64,000 nt of DNA from NCBI GenBank assembly GCA_900112325.1, contig FOLJ01000002.1, positions 310,001-374,000 of the forward strand. The letters are read 5' to 3'. This DNA is from Micromonospora sediminimaris. Lineage in GTDB: Bacteria > Actinomycetota > Actinomycetes > Mycobacteriales > Micromonosporaceae. The position numbers and the translations under genes were made by a program. Under the pieces are notes generated by a model. The model did not search any database, was not told the DNA's origin, and worked only from the letters and a program-made list of their open reading frames with translations. This document shows positions 1,361 to 14,642 of the stretch, piece after piece. Each line of letters starts with the position of its first letter. Within the stretch, counting starts at the first letter, position 1.

Positions 1361-1858
1361 GTGACCGAGACACAGACCGAACCTGATCTTTCGTACATTG
1401 CCAACGTGACGCGCGTCCGCGCGGCCGCCGGCATCGTCTTGCGTGACGAGGCCGGTCGGGTGTTGGTGGTCCACCCGACCTACAAGGACGTGTGGGAGAT
1501 CCCCGGCGGGACAGTGGAACCGGACGAGTCCCCGGCGGACGCATGCGCCCGCGAGGTCAGGGAGGAACTGGGCCTGTCGGTGTCCGCAGGAGCGCTGCTG
1601 TGCGTCGACTGGGTGCCGGCCAGCCCACCGTGGGACGGCGGACTCATGTTCGTATTCGACGGCGGGGTCCTCGCGCCGGACCAGATCGCGACGATCCGCC
1701 TGTGCCCCGACGAGCTGGACCGGTACGACTTCATCGAGCCGGAACGCCTCGACCAGGTGTTGATTCCTCGGTTGGCTCGGCGGGTTGCCGCAGCGGTCGC
1801 CGCCATCGGGCATGGCGGTGTCTACCTTGAGGATGGAGTCGCGACCTCAAGCAGGTGA
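1361..1858 (+). CDS. NUDIX hydrolase
   Basis: 165 residues from GTG 1361. The Nudix box is complete: GGTVEPDESPADACAREV then REELGL, with the glycine, REXXEE core and hydrophobic position all present, around residues 49-72. The enzyme should hydrolyse a nucleoside diphosphate linked to another group; the substrate cannot be told. The N-terminus is a normal Nudix beta-strand entry (RAAAGIVLRDEAGRVLVV). The gene lies tail-to-tail with the Gfo/Idh gene and overlaps its 3' end by 37 bases, so it is not part of that operon. The ribosome binding site is weak, so the start is uncertain by a few codons. Confidence 0.85.
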   Translation: MTETQTEPDLSYIANVTRVRAAAGIVLRDEAGRVLVVHPTYKDVWEIPGGTVEPDESPADACAREVREELGLSVSAGALLCVDWVPASPPWDGGLMFVFDGGVLAPDQIATIRLCPDELDRYDFIEPERLDQVLIPRLARRVAAAVAAIGHGGVYLEDGVATSSR

Positions 1859-2886
1859 TCGGCCGCACTGAATCGTGGACGCGGTGCGCGCGGCAGGTCA
1901 GGCGTGGCGGAGCTACCGGTTGCTGCCGAATTCAGAACGGCCTCGGCGGCGGCGATGGTCGCGACGGCCTGCCGCAGGGTCACGATCGGTGCGTCCCGGC
2001 CGAGGATGGCGTTGCGGAAGGCTTCGTGTTCCCTGAGCAGGGGTTCTCGTTTCGGGATCGCGTATCGGGTGATGGCTCCTTCGCTGACACCTCTGAACAC
2101 TTCGGCGGCGGCCCATTCGGTTGGCGCTGAGCCGTTGGCGTAGAAGGTGAGATCACCGTGGACGGTGTCGGCTGCGAGGCAGCCGTGAGCGCCGGTGACG
2201 ATGGTGATGCGTTCCTTGAGTGGGGATAGCCAGTTGACGATGTGGTTAGTGAGGGTGCCGTCACTGAGTTCGCCGAGGATGACGGCGAGGTCTTCGGCGA
2301 TCCGGCCACTGCGGGCCATGGTTCGGGCTGCGACTGAGACCAGCGGCATTCCGGTGACCCAGGTGGTGATGTCCAGGTCGTGGGTGGCGAGGTCGAGTAC
2401 GACGCCGACGTCGCGGATCCGGGGCGGGTAGGGCCCTTGGCGCCGGGTGGTGATCTGGTAGAGGTCGCCGAGGGCCCCGTCGGCGAGTCGGAGCCGCATG
2501 GCTTCCAGTGCGGGGTTGTACCGCTCGGTGTGGCCTACGGCTCCGATCAGTCCGGCGGTGTCGAACGCTTCAGCGAGGGCTCGTGCGGTGGTCAGGTCCG
2601 GGGCAAGGGGTTTCTCGATCAGCGCCGGTACGCCAGCCTCGGCGAGTTTGTAGCCGATGGCCGCGTGGTGGGCGGTGGGCACGGCGACGACGCAGTAGTC
2701 GAGCCGATGCGTGAGGAGCTGCTCCAGATCGGCGGCAAGGGCGACACCTCGGGTGGCCTGGTGCTGGTCTCCGCGAGGGTCGGTCGCGGCGACGAGCTCG
2801 ACGCCGGGGAGCTGGCTGAGGACGCGGGCATGGTTGCGACCCATCATGCCCAGGCCGACGAGTCCGGCTCGCAGCGGCGCGCTCAT
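1822..2886 (-). CDS. Gfo/Idh/MocA oxidoreductase, probable nucleotide-sugar 3-dehydrogenase
   Basis: 354 residues. An N-terminal Rossmann fold with GLGMMGRNHARV (residues 11-22), EKP at 91-93 and GHTERYNP at 118-125 followed by a DLATHD segment with His169 mark the Gfo/Idh/MocA family. The GHxERxNP variant is seen in enzymes that oxidise C3 of UDP-N-acetylglucosamine or its uronic acid (GnnA-like and methanogen enzymes). The start ATG overlaps the stop of the upstream aminotransferase as ATGA, so translation is coupled. With the adjacent aminotransferase and the acetyltransferase at 5342-5959 it likely makes a 3-keto sugar for amination. The exact substrate is inferred from this triad. Confidence 0.85.
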   Translation of the reverse strand: MSAPLRAGLVGLGMMGRNHARVLSQLPGVELVAATDPRGDQHQATRGVALAADLEQLLTHRLDYCVVAVPTAHHAAIGYKLAEAGVPALIEKPLAPDLTTARALAEAFDTAGLIGAVGHTERYNPALEAMRLRLADGALGDLYQITTRRQGPYPPRIRDVGVVLDLATHDLDITTWVTGMPLVSVAARTMARSGRIAEDLAVILGELSDGTLTNHIVNWLSPLKERITIVTGAHGCLAADTVHGDLTFYANGSAPTEWAAAEVFRGVSEGAITRYAIPKREPLLREHEAFRNAILGRDAPIVTLRQAVATIAAAEAVLNSAATGSSATPDLPRAPRPRFSAADHLLEVATPSSR

Positions 2887-3944
2887 CGGCGCACCGCTGT
2901 CACGATTCGGGCTAGGTCGGACTGTGTGAGCTGCGGATGGACGGGCAGGGAAAGCACCTCGGCTGCCGCCTGTTCCGTGTGCTGGAGGTCGGCGGGTTGG
3001 CCGTAGGCCGGACTGCGATGCAGCGGCGTCGGATAGTGGATCCCGGTCTCGATCTGGGACTCGGCGAGTTGTTGCCGTAGTGCGTTCCGGTTGTGACTAC
3101 GAATGACGTACTGGTGGTAGGCGTGGACGGCGTCCGGCAGGACCGGCGGGGTGACAACGCCATGGAGCTGCTCGGTGAGTATGGCGGCGTGCGCTTGTCT
3201 GCGGACGGTCCACGACGGCAGTGACCGCAGTTGAACCCGGCCGACTGCGGCGCAGACGTCGGTCATCCGGCCGTTGAAGCCGATCAGCTCGTACTCGTAG
3301 CGGGAGGGCATGCCCTGGTTGCGCAGCAACCGTAGTCGTCTGGCCACTTGGTCATCGGCCGTGACCACCATGCCGCCTTCGATGGCGTGCATGTTCTTGG
3401 TGGGATAGAAGCTGAAGGCGGCGGCGTGACCGAACGCTCCTGCCGAGGTCCCGCCCAGTGCGGCGCCGACGGCTTGTGCGGCGTCTTCGATGACCGCGAG
3501 GCCGTGCTGGGCCGCGAGGGCGGTCAGGCGGTCCATCGCGGCGGGGTGGCCGAACAGGTGGACTGGGATGATGGCGGCGGTGCTGGATGTGATGGCTGCT
3601 GCTGTCGCGTCGGGGTCGAGGGTGAAGGTCTCCGGGTCGATGTCGGCGAAGATCGGTGTAGCGCCGGTGTGGGCGACAGCGTGCGCGGTAGCGCCGAAAG
3701 TGAAGGACGGCAGGATCACCTGGTCTCCGGGGCCGATGCCGTAGGCGCGTAGCGCAAGGTGCAGAGCGATGGTGCCGGAGCTGACCGCCACACAGTGTCG
3801 ACCGGCGACGAGGTCCGCGAACTCGGCTTCGAACGCGGCGACCTCGCTGCCTTGGACGAGTTGGCGGCTGCGCAGTACGCGGACGACGGCGTCGATCTCG
3901 GCGTCACCGACGTGCGGGTGGGCGAGTGTGATCGGACGCGTCAT
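2883..3944 (-). CDS. DegT/DnrJ/EryC1/StrS family PLP-dependent sugar aminotransferase
   Basis: 353 residues from ATG 3944, chosen because GAGGAGG lies five bases upstream; an upstream GTG at 3950 would overlap that site. The fold-type I aminotransferase shows SSGTIALHLAL, the PLP-contacting EDAAQAVGA (about residues 153-161) and the Schiff-base lysine in FSFYPTKNMHAIEGGM (Lys183). Family members transaminate keto-sugar nucleotides with glutamate. It is directly upstream of, and coupled to, the Gfo/Idh gene, the standard pairing for 3-amino-3-deoxy sugars (WbpE/WbpB, GnnB/GnnA). A gap of 60 bases separates it from the MurA-like gene upstream. Confidence 0.88.
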   Translation of the reverse strand: MTRPITLAHPHVGDAEIDAVVRVLRSRQLVQGSEVAAFEAEFADLVAGRHCVAVSSGTIALHLALRAYGIGPGDQVILPSFTFGATAHAVAHTGATPIFADIDPETFTLDPDATAAAITSSTAAIIPVHLFGHPAAMDRLTALAAQHGLAVIEDAAQAVGAALGGTSAGAFGHAAAFSFYPTKNMHAIEGGMVVTADDQVARRLRLLRNQGMPSRYEYELIGFNGRMTDVCAAVGRVQLRSLPSWTVRRQAHAAILTEQLHGVVTPPVLPDAVHAYHQYVIRSHNRNALRQQLAESQIETGIHYPTPLHRSPAYGQPADLQHTEQAAAEVLSLPVHPQLTQSDLARIVTAVRR

Positions 3945-4004
3945 GGTCACCTCCTCGGTTCTTGCGAGCGGCTCGGCACCGTCTGCGCCGCGGTGAGCCG
4001 GTCG

Positions 4005-5276
4005 TCAGATTTCATCGCGGGTGATGTCCGCGCCGAGGGCGGTGAACCGGCTGGCCAGGTCTGCGTGGCCTCGGTCGATCATGGTGCCGTTGCCGATGAC
4101 CGTTTCGCCGTCGGCGACAAGGCCGGCCAGCACGAGCCCGATGCCGGTCCGCAGGTCCTGGGCGATGACGTCGGCGCCGCGCAGCGGCTTGCCACCGTGC
4201 ACGACGGCCTTCTCGCCGTCGACGGTGAGGTCCGCGCCGAGCTTGGTCAGCTCATCTGCGAGGGCGTAGCGGGCGTCGTGGATGCGCTCGCGGAAGTAGC
4301 TCGCTCCGGGCGCCTGGGTGGCGAGGGCCATCAGCGGAGGCTGCAGGTCGGTGGCGAATCCGGGGTGGGTGTCGGTGATGACGTTGATCGGATGCAGTTG
4401 ACCGGGTCGGGTGACGTTGGTGACCGCTCCGGCGGCGCCGAGTTCAACGCCCATCTGGTGAAGTTTGTGGGCGGCGACTCCGAAGTGATCAAGCACGGTG
4501 CCGCCGACGAGGTTGATCGTGCCGCCGGTGATGGCCGCCGCGATGGCCAGCACCCCGGCGTCCATGCGGTCCGGCATGATCGTGTACTCGGTCGCGTTGA
4601 GCTCGTCGACCCCGTGGACGACGATGCGGCCGGTCCCCGCGCCGCTGATCTGGGCGCCCATGGCCGTGAGCATCGCGACTACGTCGAGGACCTCGGGTTC
4701 CAGGGCGGTGTTTTCGATGACGGTCCGGCCCGGGGTCAGAGCCGCAGCCATGATGAGGTTCTCGGTGCCGGTGTGTGAGGGGGTGTCGAGGTACAGGTCG
4801 GCGCCGCGAAGGTTGCCGGCCTTGATGCTGATCGTGGTGCCCTGTTCGTCGATGTGCGCGCCGAGGCGAGCCAGCCCTCGATAGTGGAAGTCGAGTCCTC
4901 GGGTGCCGAGGGCACAACCGCCGGCGCCCTCGAAGATGACCTCGCCGCGGCGGTGCAGCACCGGTGCGAGGAACAACACGCTGCCCCGGAACAGGCGGGT
5001 GAGATTGGCCGGTAGCCGTGAGCTGGTGATGTCGGTGGCGTCGATGACGAGCAGTCGGTCGTTCGGGTGGTATTCGACGTGGGCGCCGAGGAGCCGGGCG
5101 AGGTCGACGGCGCGCTGGACGTCGGTGATCGCGGGGACGTTACGCAGCACCGTCTGACCGCGTCGGGCAAGCAGCGCGGCGCCAATCATGGGCAGGGCGG
5201 CGTTCTTCGCGCCTTGGACGACGGCGGTGCCGTTGAGCGGCCCGGCCGGGCGGACACGGTAGCGGACTTCGGTCAT
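4005..5276 (-). CDS. MurA-family enolpyruvyltransferase (UDP-GlcNAc 1-carboxyvinyltransferase homologue)
   Basis: 423 residues from ATG 5276, supported by AAGGAG six bases upstream; the open frame extends further 5' but without family similarity. The protein aligns with MurA over its whole length: GAKNAALPM (Lys24, Asn25), the loop GAGGCALGTRGLDFH with catalytic-loop Cys121, FATDLQ with catalytic Asp310, and DLRTG with Arg376. MurA transfers enolpyruvate from PEP to the 3-OH of UDP-GlcNAc. Lying inside a sugar-modifying operon rather than a cell-wall cluster, this copy is either a biosynthetic enolpyruvyltransferase or a spare, possibly resistant, MurA. Retention of Cys121 argues against the Cys-to-Asp route to fosfomycin resistance. 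Confidence 0.88.
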   Translation of the reverse strand: MTEVRYRVRPAGPLNGTAVVQGAKNAALPMIGAALLARRGQTVLRNVPAITDVQRAVDLARLLGAHVEYHPNDRLLVIDATDITSSRLPANLTRLFRGSVLFLAPVLHRRGEVIFEGAGGCALGTRGLDFHYRGLARLGAHIDEQGTTISIKAGNLRGADLYLDTPSHTGTENLIMAAALTPGRTVIENTALEPEVLDVVAMLTAMGAQISGAGTGRIVVHGVDELNATEYTIMPDRMDAGVLAIAAAITGGTINLVGGTVLDHFGVAAHKLHQMGVELGAAGAVTNVTRPGQLHPINVITDTHPGFATDLQPPLMALATQAPGASYFRERIHDARYALADELTKLGADLTVDGEKAVVHGGKPLRGADVIAQDLRTGIGLVLAGLVADGETVIGNGTMIDRGHADLASRFTALGADITRDEI

Positions 5277-5341
5277 GTGACGCTCCTTCAACAGTGATCG
5301 AGATGGTGCTCGTGCGGGCAGTCGCCGGTGGTGTACGGCGG

Positions 5342-5959
5342 TCACGTGGCCAGGGACAAGCCGTACGGTCGTTGGTGGTAGAGCCGGCCGCAGGTGGGGC
5401 AGGTGAGGTTGTCGTTGAGGCGGTGTCCGCACATGCAGGACCAGCCGAGTTGCCGGGCTGGGTTGCCCATGACGAGCCCGTGGTCTGGCACGTCGTGCCC
5501 CACGACGCTGCCGATGCCGACCAGGGCGTACCGGCCGATGGTGACGCCTGGGGCGATGACCGAGTTGGCGCCGATGGTGGCGCCGTAGCGGATGGTCACC
5601 GGTTCCCGCCGCCAGTCATTGCGGCCTTTCAGGTGGCCGGAGGGGTTGACGGCTCGGGGTGCCGGGTCCTCCAGCAGGTAGACGCCAGGGGCGAGCATCA
5701 CGCCGTCTTCCAGGGTGGCTCCGAACACCCCGCACCCGTCCTGGATCTTGACCAGGTTGCCGATGACCGCTGCTGAGGCCACATGCACGCCCTTGCCGAG
5801 CACGCAGTCCTCGCCGATCCGGACGTCTGCGTCGACCTGGCTGTGATGCCAGATCCGGGTCCGCGCTCCGATGCGTGCCGCTGGGGCGACCTCCGCCGAC
5901 TCGGCGATGAACGGCGGGTCCGACGTACGACTCGTCGTCGGTGTTGGCTTCTCGGTCAT
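5342..5959 (-). CDS. Left-handed beta-helix sugar N-acetyltransferase (WbpD-like)
   Basis: 205 residues. Hexapeptide repeats run through most of the chain (VGVIGN-type turns; the segment GNLVKIQDGCGVFG, then LEDGVMLAPGVYLL and NPSGH). This order matches WbpD-type enzymes that N-acetylate the 3-amino group of UDP-GlcNAc3N(A) with acetyl-CoA. After the helix, a short tail carries four cysteines (CMC near 175-177 and CPTC near 187-190), a likely zinc site seen in some actinobacterial relatives. The start ATG overlaps the ACP stop as ATGA. The neighbouring aminotransferase and dehydrogenase complete the 3-acetamido sugar set. Confidence 0.87.
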   Translation of the reverse strand: MTEKPTPTTSRTSDPPFIAESAEVAPAARIGARTRIWHHSQVDADVRIGEDCVLGKGVHVASAAVIGNLVKIQDGCGVFGATLEDGVMLAPGVYLLEDPAPRAVNPSGHLKGRNDWRREPVTIRYGATIGANSVIAPGVTIGRYALVGIGSVVGHDVPDHGLVMGNPARQLGWSCMCGHRLNDNLTCPTCGRLYHQRPYGLSLAT

Positions 5960-6207
5960 GCCGAACGCTCCGAAGATGTCAGCAGCCGCTCCAAGTCGTC
6001 CACGGTCTGGACGCTGAGCAGTTCGTGGTCGGGTATGGGGCGGCCGGTGCGTTCCTCCAGCAGCACGGCGAGGGTGAGCCGGCCGAGGGAGTCCAGACCG
6101 AGATCGGACAGCCGCGTGGAGGCGATGATGGAGTCGGCGGCTCGGCCGCTGATCTCGCCGAGGATCTGTCGGGCCACGGTCTGCTGGTCCGTGGCCTGGA
6201 TGATCAT
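5956..6207 (-). CDS. Stand-alone acyl carrier protein
   Basis: 83 residues. LSDLGLDSLGRLTLAVLLEE carries the phosphopantetheine attachment Ser40 in the DSL motif, followed by the third-helix region TVDDLERLL. ATG overlaps the stop of the FAD oxidase frame upstream (ATGA), and its own stop overlaps the acetyltransferase start, so all three are translationally coupled. No ketosynthase, adenylation domain or acyltransferase is visible in the operon. The carrier may therefore hold an amino acid or small acyl group loaded by an enzyme encoded elsewhere, and the FAD oxidase is the most likely enzyme to act on it. That last step is inference. Confidence 0.88.
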   Translation of the reverse strand: MIIQATDQQTVARQILGEISGRAADSIIASTRLSDLGLDSLGRLTLAVLLEERTGRPIPDHELLSVQTVDDLERLLTSSERSA

Positions 6208-7615
6208 CGGATCCGTCCTGCGGCGTCGAGTAGCAGCGGCAGGCATTCGGCCATCGGCGCACGCTGCCAGAGCCTGCGCATGGCGACTGCCCTTGTTGAA
6301 CTGCCGGCGGCAATCTCGTGCAACGCCGCCGCCAGGAAGCGTTCCAGCAGCTCCTGCGTTCCGGGCGGGAGGCTGCCGCCTGGTTGGCACAGCATGTCCA
6401 CCAGGCCGCGACTCGCGCCGTCGATGAGGTCGTCGAGCGCCGGCAGGTCCATCGTCCGCTGCGGGCTGAAAGGGTGGGTGGAGGTGGAACTGGGAGCGGT
6501 GATCCCGTCGGCGACGATGGCGGCGGCTCGCGGCGCGAGTAGTACTCCGCACCGGTAGGTGCCGGTAGCAAGGTGGATCATCGGGTGTCTGGTGCGGCCA
6601 AACAGCGGCAGGTGATCGAGGGTGACCGGTCGGTGCCCGACACGGACCTCGATCAGTCCGGCGGAACGCAGGTCGGTGTTGAGCTCGGCGCTCGCGTCGT
6701 GGATCAAGGTGGCGACCTCGTCCAGGGTGGGAGGTTGGCCGTAGTCGGGTTCGGTGGAGAGCCGGTTCGTCGCACCCAGATAGATGGTGCCGTCGCCGCG
6801 CGGGACCATGTGGCTGCCACAGGCGAAGCCCCGGTTCGGGGTTCGCACGGCAGTGGGCAGCGAGAACGGAACGCGGGCCAGCAGCGACACGCCTCGCCCG
6901 GACCGCAGCGGTGGTGCGCCGACCTGCTCGGCGAGCTCTGGGGCGAGCAGACCCGTCGTCCCGGCCCCGGCAGCGAGCACCAGGTGAGCGGCCAGGACAC
7001 TGCTGCCATCAGCCGCGCCGACCGCCAGATGCTCGCCGCGCTCGTTGACTGTGCTCACGGTGGTGTTGAGCCACCGGCAGCGAGGATTGGCGTGCAGCAC
7101 CGCGGTCAGCGCCTCGACCAGGATCGTCGGGTCGACGCTGGCCTCATCCGGCAGCCAAAGCGCCTCGTGTGCCCGCACCTGCGGTGCCAGTCCTGGCACG
7201 GCGGCCGGCGACGCGAACTCGGCGCGGCATCCATGGGTCTCGGCGGCCTCTGCGATGGCCCGAAGGTTCGCAGCGTCGTCTGGCCCGTAGCCGTTGCCGA
7301 TCACCCATACGCCCGGGACAAGCCGTACCGCCTGTTTGCTGGCCGTGCCGACGCGGTCCAGCCAGGCCTCAAGCCGGTTCGGGCGACCAACCGTTCACCG
7401 ACTTCGAGGCTGACCCGCTGAGGATCATGGTTCGCTTCGACTTCGCTGAACACGGTGAGCATCGCCCCGGCGGCCCGCGATGCCTGCCCCGCGTGGTCGC
7501 CGGTCCGAGGCCCGACCACGGTGACGTCCAGGTCCCGGCTGAGCAACTCGAAGGCAGTAGCAAGCCCGAGCAGGCCGGAGCCGGCCACCACGACGTCAGT
7601 TACGAACTGGTTCAT
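6204..7615 (-). pseudogene. FAD-dependent oxidoreductase (DAO/ThiO-like), disrupted by a frameshift
   Basis: The N-terminal part starts at ATG 7615 (GTG 7624 is possible) and shows the FAD-binding fingerprint VVVAGSGLLGLATAFELL. It reads in frame to about 7374, where the homologous frame continues only after a -1 shift: ERLVARTGL is followed, in the other frame, by EAWLDRVGTASKQAVRL and VPGVWVIGNGYGPDDAANL. Without the shift the first frame ends at 7301. The C-terminal frame runs to 6204 and includes PRGDGTIYLGATNR and the GTYRCGVLLAPRAAAIVADGI flavin-domain end. The family oxidises amine or amino-acid C-N bonds (D-amino acid oxidase, glycine oxidase). One missing base near 7373-7376 explains it: real decay, a sequencing error or, less likely, recoding. 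Confidence 0.8.
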
Positions 7616-7616
7616 G

Positions 7617-8480
7617 TCACTCACCTGATCCGTCCTGGGAATCGATGCGGGTGGCGGCTAGGGTGTGCACCTCGAACCGGAGGCCACGGAACGCTGCTCG
7701 TTCGGCAGCCCGAAGCGGGTACAGCCGCGACAGCAGCACGTCGCGGTGTGCCGCATAGCGACGCAAGGGGATGTCCAGTTCGCAGACCTGCACCGTGCGG
7801 CACTCATATCCGTTGCGTTGCAACGTCCGGCGGGTGCGAGAGATGTCCGTCAGGGACGAATGCGTCAACAGCAGCGTCCCGCCCGGAGCAAGCAGCTCGT
7901 CGAGACGGGCGAGCAGGACGTCGTACAACGCCCGCCCGTCACTGCCACCGACCAACGCGGCCTCGATACCGTCGTCAGCGGCGTAGATCGGATCGTGCGG
8001 AAAATGCGGTGGGTTGCACACCACCAGGTCCCACGGTTCGACGACTGCCAACTCGGCGAGGTCCCCGACGATCGTCGCTACTTGTGCAGGCCGGATACCG
8101 TTGCGGGTCGCATTCTCGCGGGTCACGTCGGCGCATGCCGGGTTGACGTCCAGCGCGGTCACGTGTGCCGCGCCCGCCATGGCCAGCGCCACCGTGTACA
8201 GGCCGGAGCCGCACCCGACATCCAAGGCGCGGGCGCCCGACACGAGAAGGCCAGGGTCGGCGTTCAGAGCGCTCAGCAGCGTGAGCCCCACGTCGGTCGG
8301 AAAGAGGACGGGTCCCTCGTCCGACGTCTGAATCTCGACCCGCCGACCTCGCACCTCAACCTCGGCGGAAACCATGCCGCTGCGGATCGGCCCCACCTGG
8401 CACAGCGCATTTGCCGCGCCTGCCGGAATTCTCACCCGGACCGTCTGCGGCGGCGCATTGACGACGTCAGCGCTTCTCAT
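7617..8480 (-). CDS. Class I SAM-dependent methyltransferase with NPPH motif
   Basis: 287 residues from ATG 8480, preceded by GAGGAGG; longer 5' extensions of the frame are out-of-frame reading of the upstream gene. Motif I is ALDVGCGSGLYTVALA, and motif IV is NPPHFPHDP, the NPPY-type signature of enzymes that methylate planar amino groups (HemK/PrmC, N6-adenine, RsmC/RlmG types). An N-terminal beta-rich region precedes the fold. It overlaps the upstream gene by 14 bases and is separated from the FAD oxidase start by one base (TGACATG). In this context it probably N-methylates the operon product or an intermediate, but protein or nucleic-acid targets cannot be excluded. Confidence 0.82.
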   Translation of the reverse strand: MRSADVVNAPPQTVRVRIPAGAANALCQVGPIRSGMVSAEVEVRGRRVEIQTSDEGPVLFPTDVGLTLLSALNADPGLLVSGARALDVGCGSGLYTVALAMAGAAHVTALDVNPACADVTRENATRNGIRPAQVATIVGDLAELAVVEPWDLVVCNPPHFPHDPIYAADDGIEAALVGGSDGRALYDVLLARLDELLAPGGTLLLTHSSLTDISRTRRTLQRNGYECRTVQVCELDIPLRRYAAHRDVLLSRLYPLRAAERAAFRGLRFEVHTLAATRIDSQDGSGE

Positions 8481-8889
8481 GAGGTTCCTCCTCGTCGGGA
8501 GAGGTCCTGGTGGCGACCCGATAGTCGAGGGTGTGTCGGGCGGGCCAGCCGAGGAAGCGGTCGAAGACATCGGCGGTGCTGCCGGTGTCGCTGGGGTGAA
8601 GCTGGCGCAGGTCCTCGATCGCGTCATGCAGGCAGCTGGCCAAGTAGAGAAAGAGGCTGACCGGGCTCTCCCTGTACTCCTCCAGAAGGGCAACCTTCGC
8701 CGCGCCGCACGGCCACGGATGGCCGCATCGGCGACACAGCCACAGCGGCCGTATTGGCAGATGCGGTCGGGATGGTTCGGCGCGGACTGCCTCGACCGGC
8801 CCTCCTACCAGTGCCAGCGGCCGTAACGGCGGTTGCTCCAATGGCGCGGGCGGTTCAGTGTCTGCGGGGCGGTCTTCGTCGCTGTTCAT
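8467..8889 (-). CDS. Small Cys-motif protein of a Micromonosporaceae family often labelled flavin reductase
   Basis: 140 residues from ATG 8889, which overlaps the upstream stop as ATGA. The centre reads RPLWLCRRCGHPWPCGAAK, a CxxC-x4-C cluster likely to bind a metal, followed by helical LLEEYRESPVSLFLYLASCLHDAIEDL. Similar short proteins occur next to XRE-type regulators in actinomycetes and are often called flavin reductase, but no flavin-binding motif is visible, so that label should not be trusted. It is the second gene of the operon and overlaps the methyltransferase start by 14 bases. Function unknown. Confidence 0.7.
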   Translation of the reverse strand: MNSDEDRPADTEPPAPLEQPPLRPLALVGGPVEAVRAEPSRPHLPIRPLWLCRRCGHPWPCGAAKVALLEEYRESPVSLFLYLASCLHDAIEDLRQLHPSDTGSTADVFDRFLGWPARHTLDYRVATRTSPDEEEPHEKR

Positions 8890-9050
8890 CGGGGATCGCG
8901 CTCCCGTGCCTGGCGCTCGAAGACGATCCGCCAAACGTGCGTCAGCAGCGGCGGATCGGCCGGGTCCGACCGGGTCAACGCCGGAACTTGAGCTGCGCGG
9001 TCTGACGTCAGCTCGCCAGTCTCGGCGTACCGCGACACGTACACCGTCAT
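8886..9050 (-). CDS. Small hypothetical protein, first gene of the operon
   Basis: 54 residues from ATG 9050, beginning MTVYVSRYAETG and ending in a basic/acidic helix (VFERQARERDPR). It is coupled by ATGA overlap to the Cys-motif protein, with which it appears paired. The frame extends upstream, but through the palindrome region and without family sense. No domain is recognised. Position as leader gene, 33 bases from the 36-bp palindrome, makes it a possible regulatory or scaffold partner. Confidence 0.65.
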   Translation of the reverse strand: MTVYVSRYAETGELTSDRAAQVPALTRSDPADPPLLTHVWRIVFERQARERDPR

Positions 9051-9497
9051 GGTCGGCCCCCGGTCGAGGCTGGCCTCGGTGTGCGGTGGGCTTGCCGGCA
9101 TGCCGGCAAGCCCACCGCCGTCGGCCGGCGACGGGGAGCAGGCCGCCGGCCACCCGCCCACGCAGCCGTGATGGCGGTACGCGTACGAGGGATCATCCGT
9201 GCGGTCGACGGAGTGCCCGGCGCGGGCACTGGCCGGTGCGTCGGGTCGCATTCCGACCTGCCGTCGTGAGGCACGTCCATCTGGATCTCCCTGGCGTGAC
9301 ATTGCCGCTGGCCCGTCGGCGCGTCATGGGGGTCAGGATGGTCCTGGACCGTTCCGCCGACGTGTTCCTGACGTCCACAATCGCTTGCCGCACCGGCCGG
9401 AAATAGACCCAGCGTGGTGGGGCACGGTGGGTCTCACCATGGCTGGCCTGGATTGATGCGAAGAGAACAGGCGGCTCGAGTCGCTACGAAACTCGGT
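9051..9497. other. Intergenic region between the operon and the phosphotransferase gene
   Basis: 447 bases without a credible gene. It contains the 36-bp palindrome at 9083-9118 and a smaller GC-rich dyad just after it (about 9120-9134). It should carry the promoter for the minus-strand operon starting at 9050; no confident -10/-35 pair was identified. The 3' end of the phosphotransferase gene forms its right border. Confidence 0.5.
9083..9118. promoter_or_regulatory. Perfect 36-bp palindrome upstream of the biosynthetic operon
   Basis: The 18-base arm GCGGTGGGCTTGCCGGCA (9083-9100) is followed without spacer by its exact reverse complement (9101-9118). It lies 33 bases upstream of the first start codon of the minus-strand operon (ATG 9050). 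It could be an operator for a dimeric regulator, or a cruciform or RNA hairpin in the leader acting as an attenuator. No T-run follows on either strand, so it is not a standard intrinsic terminator. Confidence 0.7.
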
Positions 9498-10382
9498 TCA
9501 GAGGATGTGCCAGCGGCGGAGTTCCACCCCGTCGTCAACGAGGCCCGCGATCCGGTGGTGCACCTCGTCGGCGGCCTCGGTCCCAGGGCGGGACTTACGA
9601 GCGTTGGTTGCGATCATCTGCAGCTCGCGTAGCTGGCACAGCTCCTCGAACTGGGACCAGGAGGTGGCATCCCAGCCGTAGGTGGCGGTGAAATCGGCGA
9701 AGGCTCCCGGGCCGGGCAGGTCGAATCGACGGCAGTGGACAGCGACCGTGGCGATGTCCCACTCTCGGGGTCCGAGGGCAGCACCGTCCCAGTCAGCCAG
9801 TACGGGTGTGCCGTCGAAGCGCCGGAGTGCGTTACGGATCTGCGGATCAGACTGGATCAGGCTGGTACCGCGGGGAAACCGCATCGCTTTCCAGCTGGCC
9901 GCCAGTGTTTCGAGCCGGCCCATCAGCAGATCCTGCTCCTTGTCGTTCAGGATCTCCGATCGGGTGATGGAGCGCTCGATGCTGTGGAGCGGTCGCAGTA
10001 CCGGCAGCGGCACCGGCGGAGCCGGCAGGGCGTGCAGACCTCGGAGAAGCGTTCCGAGCTCGGAAACGGTGATGGGGTTGTCGTGTGCTGGGTCCAGACG
10101 CTGCCAGACCGTGACGGCGTGCCCGCCCACCCGCAAGGGTTGGGACAGTCCTGGGTGAAGGCCCACCGTGGGGAAACCGTGGTCCACCAGCCAGTCGACC
10201 ACGGCCACCATCCCGCGCACCCGTTCCAGGTCATGGTCGCCGGGGGCGATCTTGATGACCACGTCACCGAGTGCGTAGACGGCGTTGGTGTGGTGCCGCA
10301 GCAGGATCGCGTTCGAGTCGGGGTAGCCGAGGAGACGACATACCTCGGCGAGCACCGGCCGGGTGCGCGCCTCGACGAACAT
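9498..10382 (-). CDS. Aminoglycoside phosphotransferase (APH)-family kinase
   Basis: 294 residues from ATG 10382, with TAGGAG four bases upstream; it begins seven bases after the regulator stop, so the two form an operon. The kinase-like fold shows a nucleotide-binding lysine region VVIKIAP, the catalytic loop SDPQIRNAL (Asp and Asn of the H/N-D-x4-N motif kept, first position Ser), and LADWDGAALGPREWD for magnesium binding. APH-family enzymes phosphorylate small hydroxyl compounds, including antibiotics and choline-like molecules. Beside a candidate antibiotic-like operon it may act in self-protection or as a tailoring kinase; many actinobacterial members are uncharacterised. Confidence 0.78.
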   Translation of the reverse strand: MFVEARTRPVLAEVCRLLGYPDSNAILLRHHTNAVYALGDVVIKIAPGDHDLERVRGMVAVVDWLVDHGFPTVGLHPGLSQPLRVGGHAVTVWQRLDPAHDNPITVSELGTLLRGLHALPAPPVPLPVLRPLHSIERSITRSEILNDKEQDLLMGRLETLAASWKAMRFPRGTSLIQSDPQIRNALRRFDGTPVLADWDGAALGPREWDIATVAVHCRRFDLPGPGAFADFTATYGWDATSWSQFEELCQLRELQMIATNARKSRPGTEAADEVHHRIAGLVDDGVELRRWHIL

Positions 10383-14566: not shown

Positions 14567-14642
14567 TGGTGCGCCGCCAGGGACTCGAACCCCGAACCCG
14601 CGGATTAAGAGTCCGCTGCTCTGCCAGTTGAGCTAGCGGCGC
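14567..14642 (-). tRNA. tRNA-Lys (anticodon CTT)
   Basis: The minus strand folds as a full cloverleaf. The acceptor arms GCGCCGC and GCGGCGC pair perfectly, the anticodon loop is CTCTTAA, the T-loop is GGTTCGAGTCC, and the discriminator is A followed by an encoded CCA (14567-14569). Confidence 0.95.

What the first reader, a model, noticed from the sequence alone, without database searches (positions are those of the whole stretch)
1822..9050. Compact, uncharacterised operon pairing a MurA-like enzyme with a 3-acetamido-sugar triad, an ACP, an amine oxidase and a methyltransferase
Nine minus-strand genes, nearly all overlapping, encode Gfo/Idh dehydrogenase, DegT aminotransferase and WbpD-like acetyltransferase (the known set for C3-amination and acetylation of UDP-GlcNAc derivatives), plus a MurA-family enolpyruvyltransferase that normally acts on the same C3 position, a stand-alone ACP, a DAO-like oxidase, an NPPH methyltransferase and two small proteins. 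No PKS, NRPS, radical SAM or glycosyltransferase is present. I know of no described pathway with this set; a modified nucleotide sugar, perhaps carrying an ACP-delivered amino acid, is my guess. A phosphotransferase and TPR regulator lie behind it.
Basis: partly seen in the sequence, partly recalled or inferred. Interest (0 to 1): 0.9.

Follow-up and report, generated by a model that had tools for sequence, protein, structure and literature searches.

The report
Carrier-protein amino-sugar cluster with spare MurA
A small, recurring actinobacterial gene block pairs an oxidase related to antibiotic-tailoring enzymes with a carrier protein, a sugar acyltransferase and an extra copy of the cell-wall enzyme MurA; it is predicted to hang a glycine-derived group on a cell-wall sugar precursor, which would likely make a mimic that blocks wall synthesis, but nothing has been tested and the oxidase gene is broken in this strain's sequence.

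Summary
The nine-gene block is real and recurs. Its oxidase is found in 8 of 354 Micromonosporaceae genomes. In three loci ACP and LbH are one protein, and one metagenomic protein fuses oxidase and ACP, so these three very likely work together.

The "amine oxidase" is closest to Orf1 (BD-12), which adds glycine-derived N-formimidoyl/iminoacetyl groups to amines. The catalytic cysteine is kept in 120 of 120 listed relatives, but three acceptor-side residues mostly differ.

Best reading (inferred): Gfo/DegT make UDP-GlcNAc3N; the oxidase loads a glycine-derived group on the ACP; LbH moves it to the 3-amine. The predicted product resembles MurA's product, so the third MurA copy would be protective. 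MurA and the methyltransferase are accessory (5 of 8 loci). The window's oxidase gene lacks one base against three orthologues. No paper listed in my ten searches of open-licence PubMed Central texts describes the set; MIBiG was not available.

The parts
1361..1858 (+). NUDIX hydrolase, convergent with the operon; core partner
   Evidence: PF00293 2.4e-18; homologue next to all 8 oxidase loci and inside the operon in the three variant-2 loci; six of them aligned
1822..2886 (-). Gfo/Idh/MocA dehydrogenase, likely UDP-GlcNAc 3-dehydrogenase type
   Evidence: PF01408; best NCBIfam NF040723 UDP-GlcNAc 3-dehydrogenase, 186.7 bits, below its cut-off of 450
2883..3944 (-). DegT/DnrJ/EryC1 aminotransferase, likely C3 transaminase
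   Evidence: PF01041 3.8e-120; WbpE 238.8 bits among the best PDB hits, the top one 289.8
4005..5276 (-). MurA (UDP-GlcNAc enolpyruvyl transferase), third copy in this genome; accessory, predicted self-protection
   Evidence: TIGR01072 423.7 bits; K22, N23, R91, C115, R120, R331, R397 equivalents kept (the E. coli numbers are recalled, the residues are from the alignment); three homologues in G000
5342..5959 (-). left-handed beta-helix (hexapeptide) N-acyltransferase, WlbB/WbpD-like
   Evidence: PF00132; best PDB 3mqg, 1.3e-33 (that it is WlbB is recalled); fused to ACP in L113, L114, L115
5956..6207 (-). stand-alone acyl carrier protein with DSL serine
   Evidence: PF00550 3.9e-12; DSL motif in 8 of 8
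6204..7624 (-). Orf1-like FAD glycine oxidase/formimidoyl-type transferase; broken here into two ORFs (7624-7301, 7304-6204)
   Evidence: PF01266 on both pieces; one single-base gap against three orthologues; intact orthologue closest to Orf1
7617..8480 (-). HemK/PrmC-like methyltransferase (NPPH), accessory tailoring
   Evidence: Pfam/NCBIfam; best PDB match of its family profile is N6AMT1; 5 of 8 oxidase loci
8467..8889 (-). small Cys-containing protein of unknown role
   Evidence: no Pfam or NCBIfam match; homologue before the methyltransferase in L017, L097, L031, L033
8886..9050 (-). 54-residue protein of unknown role
   Evidence: no Pfam match; homologue in L017, L097, L031, L033
9498..10418 (-). 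APH-type phosphotransferase, not core
   Evidence: PF01636; of the loci compared, also in L033
10390..11781 (-). NsdA-family HTH/TPR regulator, not core
   Evidence: NF053720 passes cut-off; close homologue in L033

Best explanation
The block likely encodes a carrier-protein pathway that would put a glycine-derived formimidoyl or carboxyformimidoyl (iminoacetyl) group on the 3-amino group of a UDP-GlcNAc derivative, and the extra MurA is predicted to protect the producer from the product. Shown: the gene set, its recurrence, the ACP::acyltransferase and oxidase::ACP fusions, the Orf1-like fold and catalytic residues of the oxidase, and the third MurA copy. Inferred: (1) Gfo and DegT turn UDP-GlcNAc into UDP-GlcNAc3N; a second, chromosomal DegT-Gfo pair would supply it where the local pair is lost. 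(2) The oxidase oxidises free glycine and passes the unit from its cysteine to the phosphopantetheine thiol of the ACP, which would explain the missing adenylation enzyme. (3) The hexapeptide enzyme moves it from the ACP to the 3-amine. (4) The result, C3-NH-C(=NH)-COOH if carboxyformimidoyl, has the shape of MurA's product, C3-O-C(=CH2)-COOH, and would block MurA or MurB. (5) The NUDIX enzyme cuts the UDP linkage, as maturation or detoxification. (6) A methyltransferase, or in variant 2 a TauD-type oxygenase, tailors it.
For: Recurrence: oxidase in 8 of 354 family genomes; with it ACP 8/8, LbH 8/8, NUDIX 8/8, Gfo 6/8, intact DegT 4/8, MurA 5/8 (one with an in-frame stop), MT 5/8, TauD 3/8. 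Fusions: PP-binding plus Hexapep in one ORF in L113, L114, L115; DAO plus PP-binding in P0198. Oxidase: Orf1 structures at 4e-38 to 2e-36, the next PDB match (CmiS2) at 6e-15. The model of the M. chalcea orthologue (pLDDT 91.9) aligns to Orf1 over up to 448 residues including the C-terminal helices, against about 360 for CmiS2 and glycine oxidases; Foldseek ranks Orf1 first. In all 120 relatives listed, equivalents of C281, H284, Y294, T298 and N299 are identical in 120 of 120, E313 in 119 of 119, R342 and R368 each in 118 of 119, A54-M57 in at least 115 of 116 that cover them. Precedents: Orf1 (PMC10156733, introduction, part of the C281 section and passages); KasN proposed to give UDP-carboxyformimidoyl-kasugamine (PMC8869731, passages); GnnA/GnnB making UDP-GlcNAc3N (PMC5644692, passages); UDP-GlcNAc phosphorylated at the 3'-position (UNAG-3P) inhibits E. 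coli MurA, Ki 7 uM (PMC3062530, passages); LpxA takes its acyl group from ACP (PMC6408518, abstract start in a listing). Complementation: all four genomes whose local DegT is missing or broken (G440, G524, G444, G317) have another DegT at 57-62% identity; of the four with an intact local DegT, one (G000) does. In G000 and G440, the two looked at, that DegT is followed by a Gfo about 60% alike. MurA: of nine genomes compared, the six with the cluster-type copy (one of them an orphan) have three MurA homologues and the three without it have two. Twelve of the 120 closest MurA proteins share their contig length with a listed MT or oxidase homologue.
Confidence: 0.35

Rival explanations
1. A plain 2,3-diacetamido-sugar branch: Gfo, DegT and LbH make UDP-GlcNAc3NAc with acetyl-CoA for a glycan or small metabolite, and oxidase, ACP and MurA serve something else.
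For: LbH is closest to 3mqg, a lipopolysaccharide acetyltransferase; WbpE is among the best DegT matches; Pcryo_0637, a beta-helix sugar N-acetyltransferase, uses acetyl-CoA.
Against: ACP and LbH are one protein in three loci, and oxidase plus ACP in another protein; the eight cluster LbHs share an ED(P/Q)APR motif and a short insertion where 3mqg has its own loop; no UDP-GlcNAc 6-dehydrogenase or glycosyltransferase domain among the nine genes.
Confidence: 0.2
2. The ACP carries an amino acid loaded in trans by an enzyme encoded elsewhere; the Orf1-like oxidase formimidoylates its amine, and LbH transfers the N-formimidoyl-aminoacyl unit to the sugar, as in the N-formimidoylglycyl group of BD-12.
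For: Orf1's natural acceptor is a glycyl amine (PMC10156733); ACP, oxidase and LbH are linked by fusions.
Against: No adenylation enzyme in the block or in ten scanned neighbours; genome-wide loading enzymes were not searched.
Confidence: 0.2
3. MurA is biosynthetic: it makes enolpyruvyl-UDP-GlcNAc (or enolpyruvylates the 3-amine) as a building block of the product.
For: Catalytic residues kept; inside the operon in five loci.
Against: Absent from 3 of 8 oxidase loci and their genomes; MurA and Gfo/DegT compete for C3; a relative stands alone in G575.
Confidence: 0.12
4. The oxidase works like CmiS2, removing a glycine-derived N-carboxymethyl group to leave an amine on a carrier-bound chain, and the pathway builds an unusual amino acid.
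For: CmiS2 is the best non-Orf1 PDB match by sequence (5.8e-15) and has the highest VIA Z (44.0 over 360 residues). Its role in making a beta-amino acid is recalled.
Against: Sequence E-value and full-length fold favour Orf1, whose C-terminal part CmiS2 lacks; no fatty-acid or PKS-type domain in the block.
Confidence: 0.08

Closest known systems
Orf1 of the BD-12 cluster and the N-formimidoyl fortimicin A synthase Fms14 (printed Fsm14 in PMC10156733)
   Same: Full-length fold, glycine site and catalytic cysteine
   Different: Mostly D, T/V and Q at the E312/F316/E426 positions; encoded with, and once fused to, an ACP; no streptothricin or aminoglycoside scaffold genes recognised in the block. 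The Fms14 sequence itself was not compared
Kasugamycin pathway (KasN proposed to make UDP-carboxyformimidoyl-kasugamine; passages of PMC8869731)
   Same: Glycine-derived amidine proposed on an amino sugar made from UDP-GlcNAc
   Different: Here a 3-amino sugar by Gfo/DegT, an ACP and an LbH transferase; no KasN sequence was compared
WbpB/WbpE/WbpD (WlbA/WlbC/WlbB) pathway
   Same: Dehydrogenase, DegT transaminase, LbH N-acyltransferase order of chemistry (pathway from passages of PMC10622841)
   Different: No UDP-GlcNAc 6-dehydrogenase or 2-epimerase in the block; Gfo is nearer to UDP-GlcNAc 3-dehydrogenase; ACP fused to LbH in variant 2
GnnA/GnnB with LpxA in lipid A synthesis (PMC5644692 passages; PMC6408518 abstract start)
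   Same: UDP-GlcNAc3N made from UDP-GlcNAc; an LbH acyltransferase fed by acyl-ACP
   Different: No fatty acid synthesis partner in the block; Gram-positive host; predicted C1/C2 acyl unit
MurA and NikO enolpyruvyl transferases
   Same: Passes the MurA equivalog cut-off
   Different: NikO is a far weaker match (112.9 against 308.7 bits for the best MurA)

Membership tests
Orf1/Fms14 N-formimidoyl synthases | Glycine site (A54, G55, A56, M57, H284, Y294, R342, R368) | tested here: met
   Identical in 46 of 46 aligned (A54-M57: 45 of 45, one row truncated there); in the 120 listed relatives at least 115 of 116 and 118 of 119 of those covering each site
Orf1/Fms14 N-formimidoyl synthases | Catalytic Cys281 that carries the N-O-S adduct | tested here: met
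   Cys in 46 of 46 and 120 of 120; motif FACG..H as in peptide AFAC281GLHLVPR
Orf1/Fms14 N-formimidoyl synthases | Acceptor-side residues E312, F316, E426 | tested here: not met
   M. chalcea orthologue has D, T, Q; among 120 relatives E312 kept in 1, F316 in 0, E426 in 3; so I call it Orf1-like, not an Orf1 enzyme
Orf1/Fms14 N-formimidoyl synthases | Full-length fold with C-terminal helical domain | tested here: met
ThiO glycine oxidase | Passes TIGR02352 cut-off (250.8 bits) | tested here: not met
   151.3 bits for the intact orthologue
MurA | Passes TIGR01072 and keeps catalytic residues | tested here: met
   423.7 bits against 392.7; residues
MurA | Enolpyruvyl transfer to UDP-GlcNAc | not testable with these tools
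   needs an enzyme assay
UDP-GlcNAc 3-dehydrogenase (NF040723) | Passes cut-off 450 bits | tested here: not met
   186.7 bits, the best NCBIfam hit
WbpD/WlbB N-acetyltransferases | Left-handed beta-helix with WlbB as nearest solved relative | tested here: met
   3mqg 1.3e-33, next 2.8e-19; the name WlbB for 3mqg is recalled
WbpD/WlbB N-acetyltransferases | Acetyl-CoA as donor | not testable with these tools
   ACP fusion speaks for another donor, but no assay
Wbp pathway to UDP-ManNAc3NAcA | 6-dehydrogenase and 2-epimerase in the locus | tested here: not met
   None among the nine genes; the rest of the genome was not searched for them
Characterised clusters in MIBiG | Match to a known cluster | not tested
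   MIBiG is not available; none of the papers listed in ten searches (titles and abstract starts) describes this set

The most novel reading that the evidence does not exclude
A natural antimetabolite pathway in which an Orf1-like oxidase loads glycine straight onto a carrier protein as a thioimidate, with no adenylation step, and a beta-helix transferase passes it to UDP-GlcNAc3N, giving a UDP-3-carboxyformimidoylamino sugar that copies enolpyruvyl-UDP-GlcNAc and jams the Mur pathway; the cluster's own MurA is the protected copy.
Probability: 0.15. Interest if true: 0.92.

Novelty: new variant of a known kind. Interest (0 to 1): 0.7.

Why it matters
If right, it joins amidine tailoring chemistry (as in BD-12 and, as proposed, kasugamycin) to nucleotide-sugar metabolism through a carrier protein, a donor form not described in the papers I saw. 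It would also give a genetically encoded mimic of the first committed cell-wall intermediate, with a built-in candidate resistance gene pointing at MurA, the target of fosfomycin. The block is small, and intact relatives exist in named strains, so the idea is directly testable. Even if the product guess is wrong, the ACP::LbH and oxidase::ACP fusions define an uncharacterised enzyme relay.

Tried and rejected
MurA as the shared core of the system: rejected as core, because three of eight oxidase loci lack it.

NikO-type nucleoside enolpyruvyl transferase: rejected on score.

Fosfomycin-type Cys-to-Asp resistance: rejected, since the cluster copy is the Cys type and the presumed housekeeping copy the Asp type.

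Methyltransferase as marker of the pathway: only partly useful; its family also sits in NRPS and HalD/ATP-grasp clusters. An order-wide search gave 12 of 298 genomes at E <= 1e-20; besides the window's own, the 11 are at 34-42% identity over part of the protein and their loci show no other block gene by tblastn in the short stretches held.

Wider sampling: LbH and the oxidase, each at E <= 1e-60, were each found in 1 of 394 class genomes, the window's own, so the block is rare. MurA was looked for in viral contigs without result.

Integrative element: an integrase and a Replic_Relax protein lie left of the window, and a tRNA-Lys(CTT) lies near the cluster in three genomes (none in the L016 and L018 stretches), but no convincing direct repeat joined the two sides, so I do not claim an element.

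First MurA tree: two rows of the window's own other MurAs were taken in the wrong frame; redone, and only one search is used. The tree leaves out the Lentzea row L021 (long branch). Cluster-labelled MurAs are not one clade (8 label changes): 15 unlabelled rows fall in the same 31-row group; many are on contigs too short to show their neighbours, but some long contigs (for instance P0216, P0221, P0229) gave no listed MT or oxidase match.

Contig-length matching treats equal 'longest contig' lengths as the same contig; this is an inference, counted by eye, and only listed rows were compared (87 MT, 120 of 268 oxidase, 120 of 6960 MurA).

LbH active site: the WlbB structure paper was not held, so its catalytic residues were not tested. 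P0198's neighbours are unknown. In L114 the Gfo homology runs past one stop near the C-terminal end, the called ORF being 335 residues.

Full report
WHAT IS THERE. The genome belongs with Micromonospora: its MurA is 97% and its MT 92% identical to Micromonospora gifhornensis proteins. The oxidase gene is split into two frames. In a DNA alignment with orthologues from S. pacifica, M. chalcea and G524 there is exactly one gap column, in the window alone. The block in this strain is therefore either freshly damaged or mis-assembled; intact orthologues exist.

RECURRENCE. MurA of this type (E <= 1e-170) was found in 6 of 354 and the oxidase (E <= 1e-60) in 8 of 354. The eight oxidase loci are: window, S. 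pacifica (L016), M. chalcea (L017), Actinoplanes sp. TFC3 (L018), G524 (L097), and three of a second kind, L113 (contig length equal to that of a Salinispora cortesiana record), L114 (equal to Actinoplanes sp. TBRC 11911) and L115. ACP, LbH and NUDIX are present in 8 of 8; Gfo in 6 of 8 (absent in L017, a C-terminal remnant in L097; in L114 with a stop near its end); DegT intact in 4 of 8 (in two frames in L113, absent in L017, L097, L115); MurA in 5 of 8 (one with an in-frame TAG); MT in 5 of 8. The second kind has a TauD-type oxygenase upstream in 3 of 3 and neither MurA nor MT. In the class sample of 394 genomes LbH and oxidase occur only in the window's own. Outside these genomes, comparing contig lengths of the listed protein hits suggests 15 contigs with MT and oxidase and 12 contigs with MurA plus MT or oxidase; equal length is taken as same contig, which is an inference.

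FUSIONS. In L113, L114 and L115 one ORF holds PP-binding and Hexapep domains; in the metagenomic protein P0198 one ORF holds the oxidase and PP-binding. This is the strongest evidence that oxidase, ACP and LbH act in sequence. The DSL serine is present in 8 of 8 ACPs.

THE OXIDASE. It fails the ThiO cut-off (151.3 against 250.8). Its best solved relatives by sequence are the structures of Orf1 (4e-38 to 2e-36), followed at a distance by CmiS2 (6e-15) and ThiO-type glycine oxidases. An AlphaFold model of the M. chalcea orthologue (pLDDT 91.9) aligns to Orf1 over up to 448 residues including the C-terminal helices; CmiS2 and glycine oxidases align over about 360. Foldseek ranks Orf1 first; by VIA Z alone CmiS2 (44.0), a glycine oxidase (43.4) and Orf1 (42.7) are near ties. 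According to PMC10156733 (introduction, first part of the C281 section, and passages), Orf1 oxidises free glycine, holds it on Cys281 through N-O-S, and transfers an N-formimidoyl or N-iminoacetyl group to an amine. I mapped that paper's residues through the printed alignment, first on 46 aligned sequences (42 of the 120 listed plus four translated from loci), then on all 120 listed. In the 120, C281, H284, Y294, T298 and N299 are identical in 120; E313 in 119 of 119; R342 and R368 each in 118 of 119; A54-M57 in at least 115 of 116 that cover them. Against a simple identity of function, E312 is D in 99 (E in 1), F316 is T in 54 or V in 41 (F in none), and E426 is Q in 87 (E in 3). In Orf1, E426Q keeps glycine oxidation but loses the product, and F316A and E312A shift towards iminoacetylation. 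I read this as a changed acceptor, with free glycine kept as donor, because the arginine that binds the free carboxylate is kept. That the acceptor is the ACP thiol is inference from the fusions and from the lack of an adenylation enzyme in the block and in ten scanned neighbours.

THE SUGAR SIDE. Gfo's best NCBIfam match is UDP-GlcNAc 3-dehydrogenase, though far below the cut-off (186.7 of 450). DegT resembles sugar and inositol transaminases, WbpE among them. LbH is closest to 3mqg, WlbB by recall, but the eight cluster LbHs share an ED(P/Q)APR motif and a short insertion where 3mqg has its own loop. All four genomes whose local DegT is missing or broken (G440, G524, G444, G317) carry another DegT at 57-62% identity, while of the four with an intact local DegT only G000 does. 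In G000 and G440, the two looked at, it is followed by a Gfo about 60% alike, in what looks by eye like a cell-envelope glycan locus. So clusters that lost the local pair could still be fed.

MURA. The genome has three MurA homologues and all pass TIGR01072. Of nine genomes compared, the six with the cluster-type copy (including the orphan in G575) have three and the three without it have two. The cluster type has Cys at the fosfomycin-binding position; the copy I presume to be housekeeping (L002) has Asp; the third (L003) Cys. In a 42-row tree the 16 cluster-labelled copies fall in a 31-row group (100/99) with 15 rows whose context is unknown or orphan; the label is not one clade. No other block gene lies near the MurA of G575. 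MurA is thus a true MurA in sequence, recurrent but accessory. I favour protection over biosynthesis because it and Gfo/DegT would compete for C3 and because variant 2 does without it.

PROPOSED MECHANISM (inferred). UDP-GlcNAc to UDP-GlcNAc3N (Gfo, DegT); glycine to a formimidoyl or carboxyformimidoyl thioimidate on the ACP (oxidase); transfer to the 3-amine (LbH); tailoring by MT or TauD enzyme; NUDIX cleavage of the UDP link. The carboxyformimidoyl product, C3-NH-C(=NH)-COOH, has the same skeleton as MurA's product, C3-O-C(=CH2)-COOH. A C3-modified UDP-GlcNAc that inhibits MurA is known: UNAG-3P, Ki 7 uM (passages of PMC3062530). A UDP-carboxyformimidoyl amino sugar has been proposed in kasugamycin biosynthesis (passages of PMC8869731). 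UDP-GlcNAc3N made by GnnA/GnnB is described in PMC5644692 (passages).

NOVELTY. No paper listed in ten searches of the held open-licence library (titles and abstract starts, between 1 and 18 rows each) describes this set; MIBiG and subscription papers were not available. Each enzyme belongs to a known family, the combination and the fusions are the new part, hence 'new variant of a known kind'.

Noticed in passing
L022-L030 (Streptomyces): The methyltransferase family sits beside a large NRPS (two condensation, two adenylation, two carrier domains and a thioesterase by Pfam in L022) and a FAD-binding/condensation fusion protein in nine Streptomyces loci (domains scanned in L022 only; the rest by sequence clustering).
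   Followed up: partly
L019, L020, L032: The same methyltransferase family sits beside a HalD-type halogenase, desaturase, GARS-like, ATP-grasp and transporter genes (domains scanned in L020 only).
   Followed up: partly
L021:7497-8837 (Lentzea kentuckyensis): A MurA homologue next to an NRPS-like protein has lost several MurA catalytic residues (H for N23 and R91, D for C115, C for the PDR aspartate), so it is probably repurposed.
   Followed up: partly
L098:10719-11993 (G575): A lone MurA, 74% identical to the cluster copy, beside what look by eye like a response regulator, a histidine kinase and a penicillin-binding protein (not scanned).
   Followed up: partly
L102:6232-7719 and 9371-10258 (left of the window); window 14567-14642: A phage-type integrase and a Replic_Relax protein lie left of the cluster and a tRNA-Lys(CTT) to its right; a tRNA-Lys(CTT) is also near the cluster in L017 and L097, and an integrase in L114, hinting at a mobile island.
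   Followed up: partly
L033 (M. solifontis) and L031 (Plantactinospora mayteni): The small upstream proteins (with the TPR regulator and APH in L033) are followed by a partial methyltransferase match and no other block gene apart from a weak Gfo match in L031: probable remnants of loss.
   Followed up: no
L116:7204-9344 and L117:6738-8944: A second DegT-Gfo pair, about 60% identical to the cluster pair, in what looks by eye like a cell-envelope glycan locus of two genomes.
   Followed up: partly
P0189: An 820-residue protein that, by eye, joins an Orf1-like oxidase to a second FAD oxidase-like stretch.
   Followed up: no
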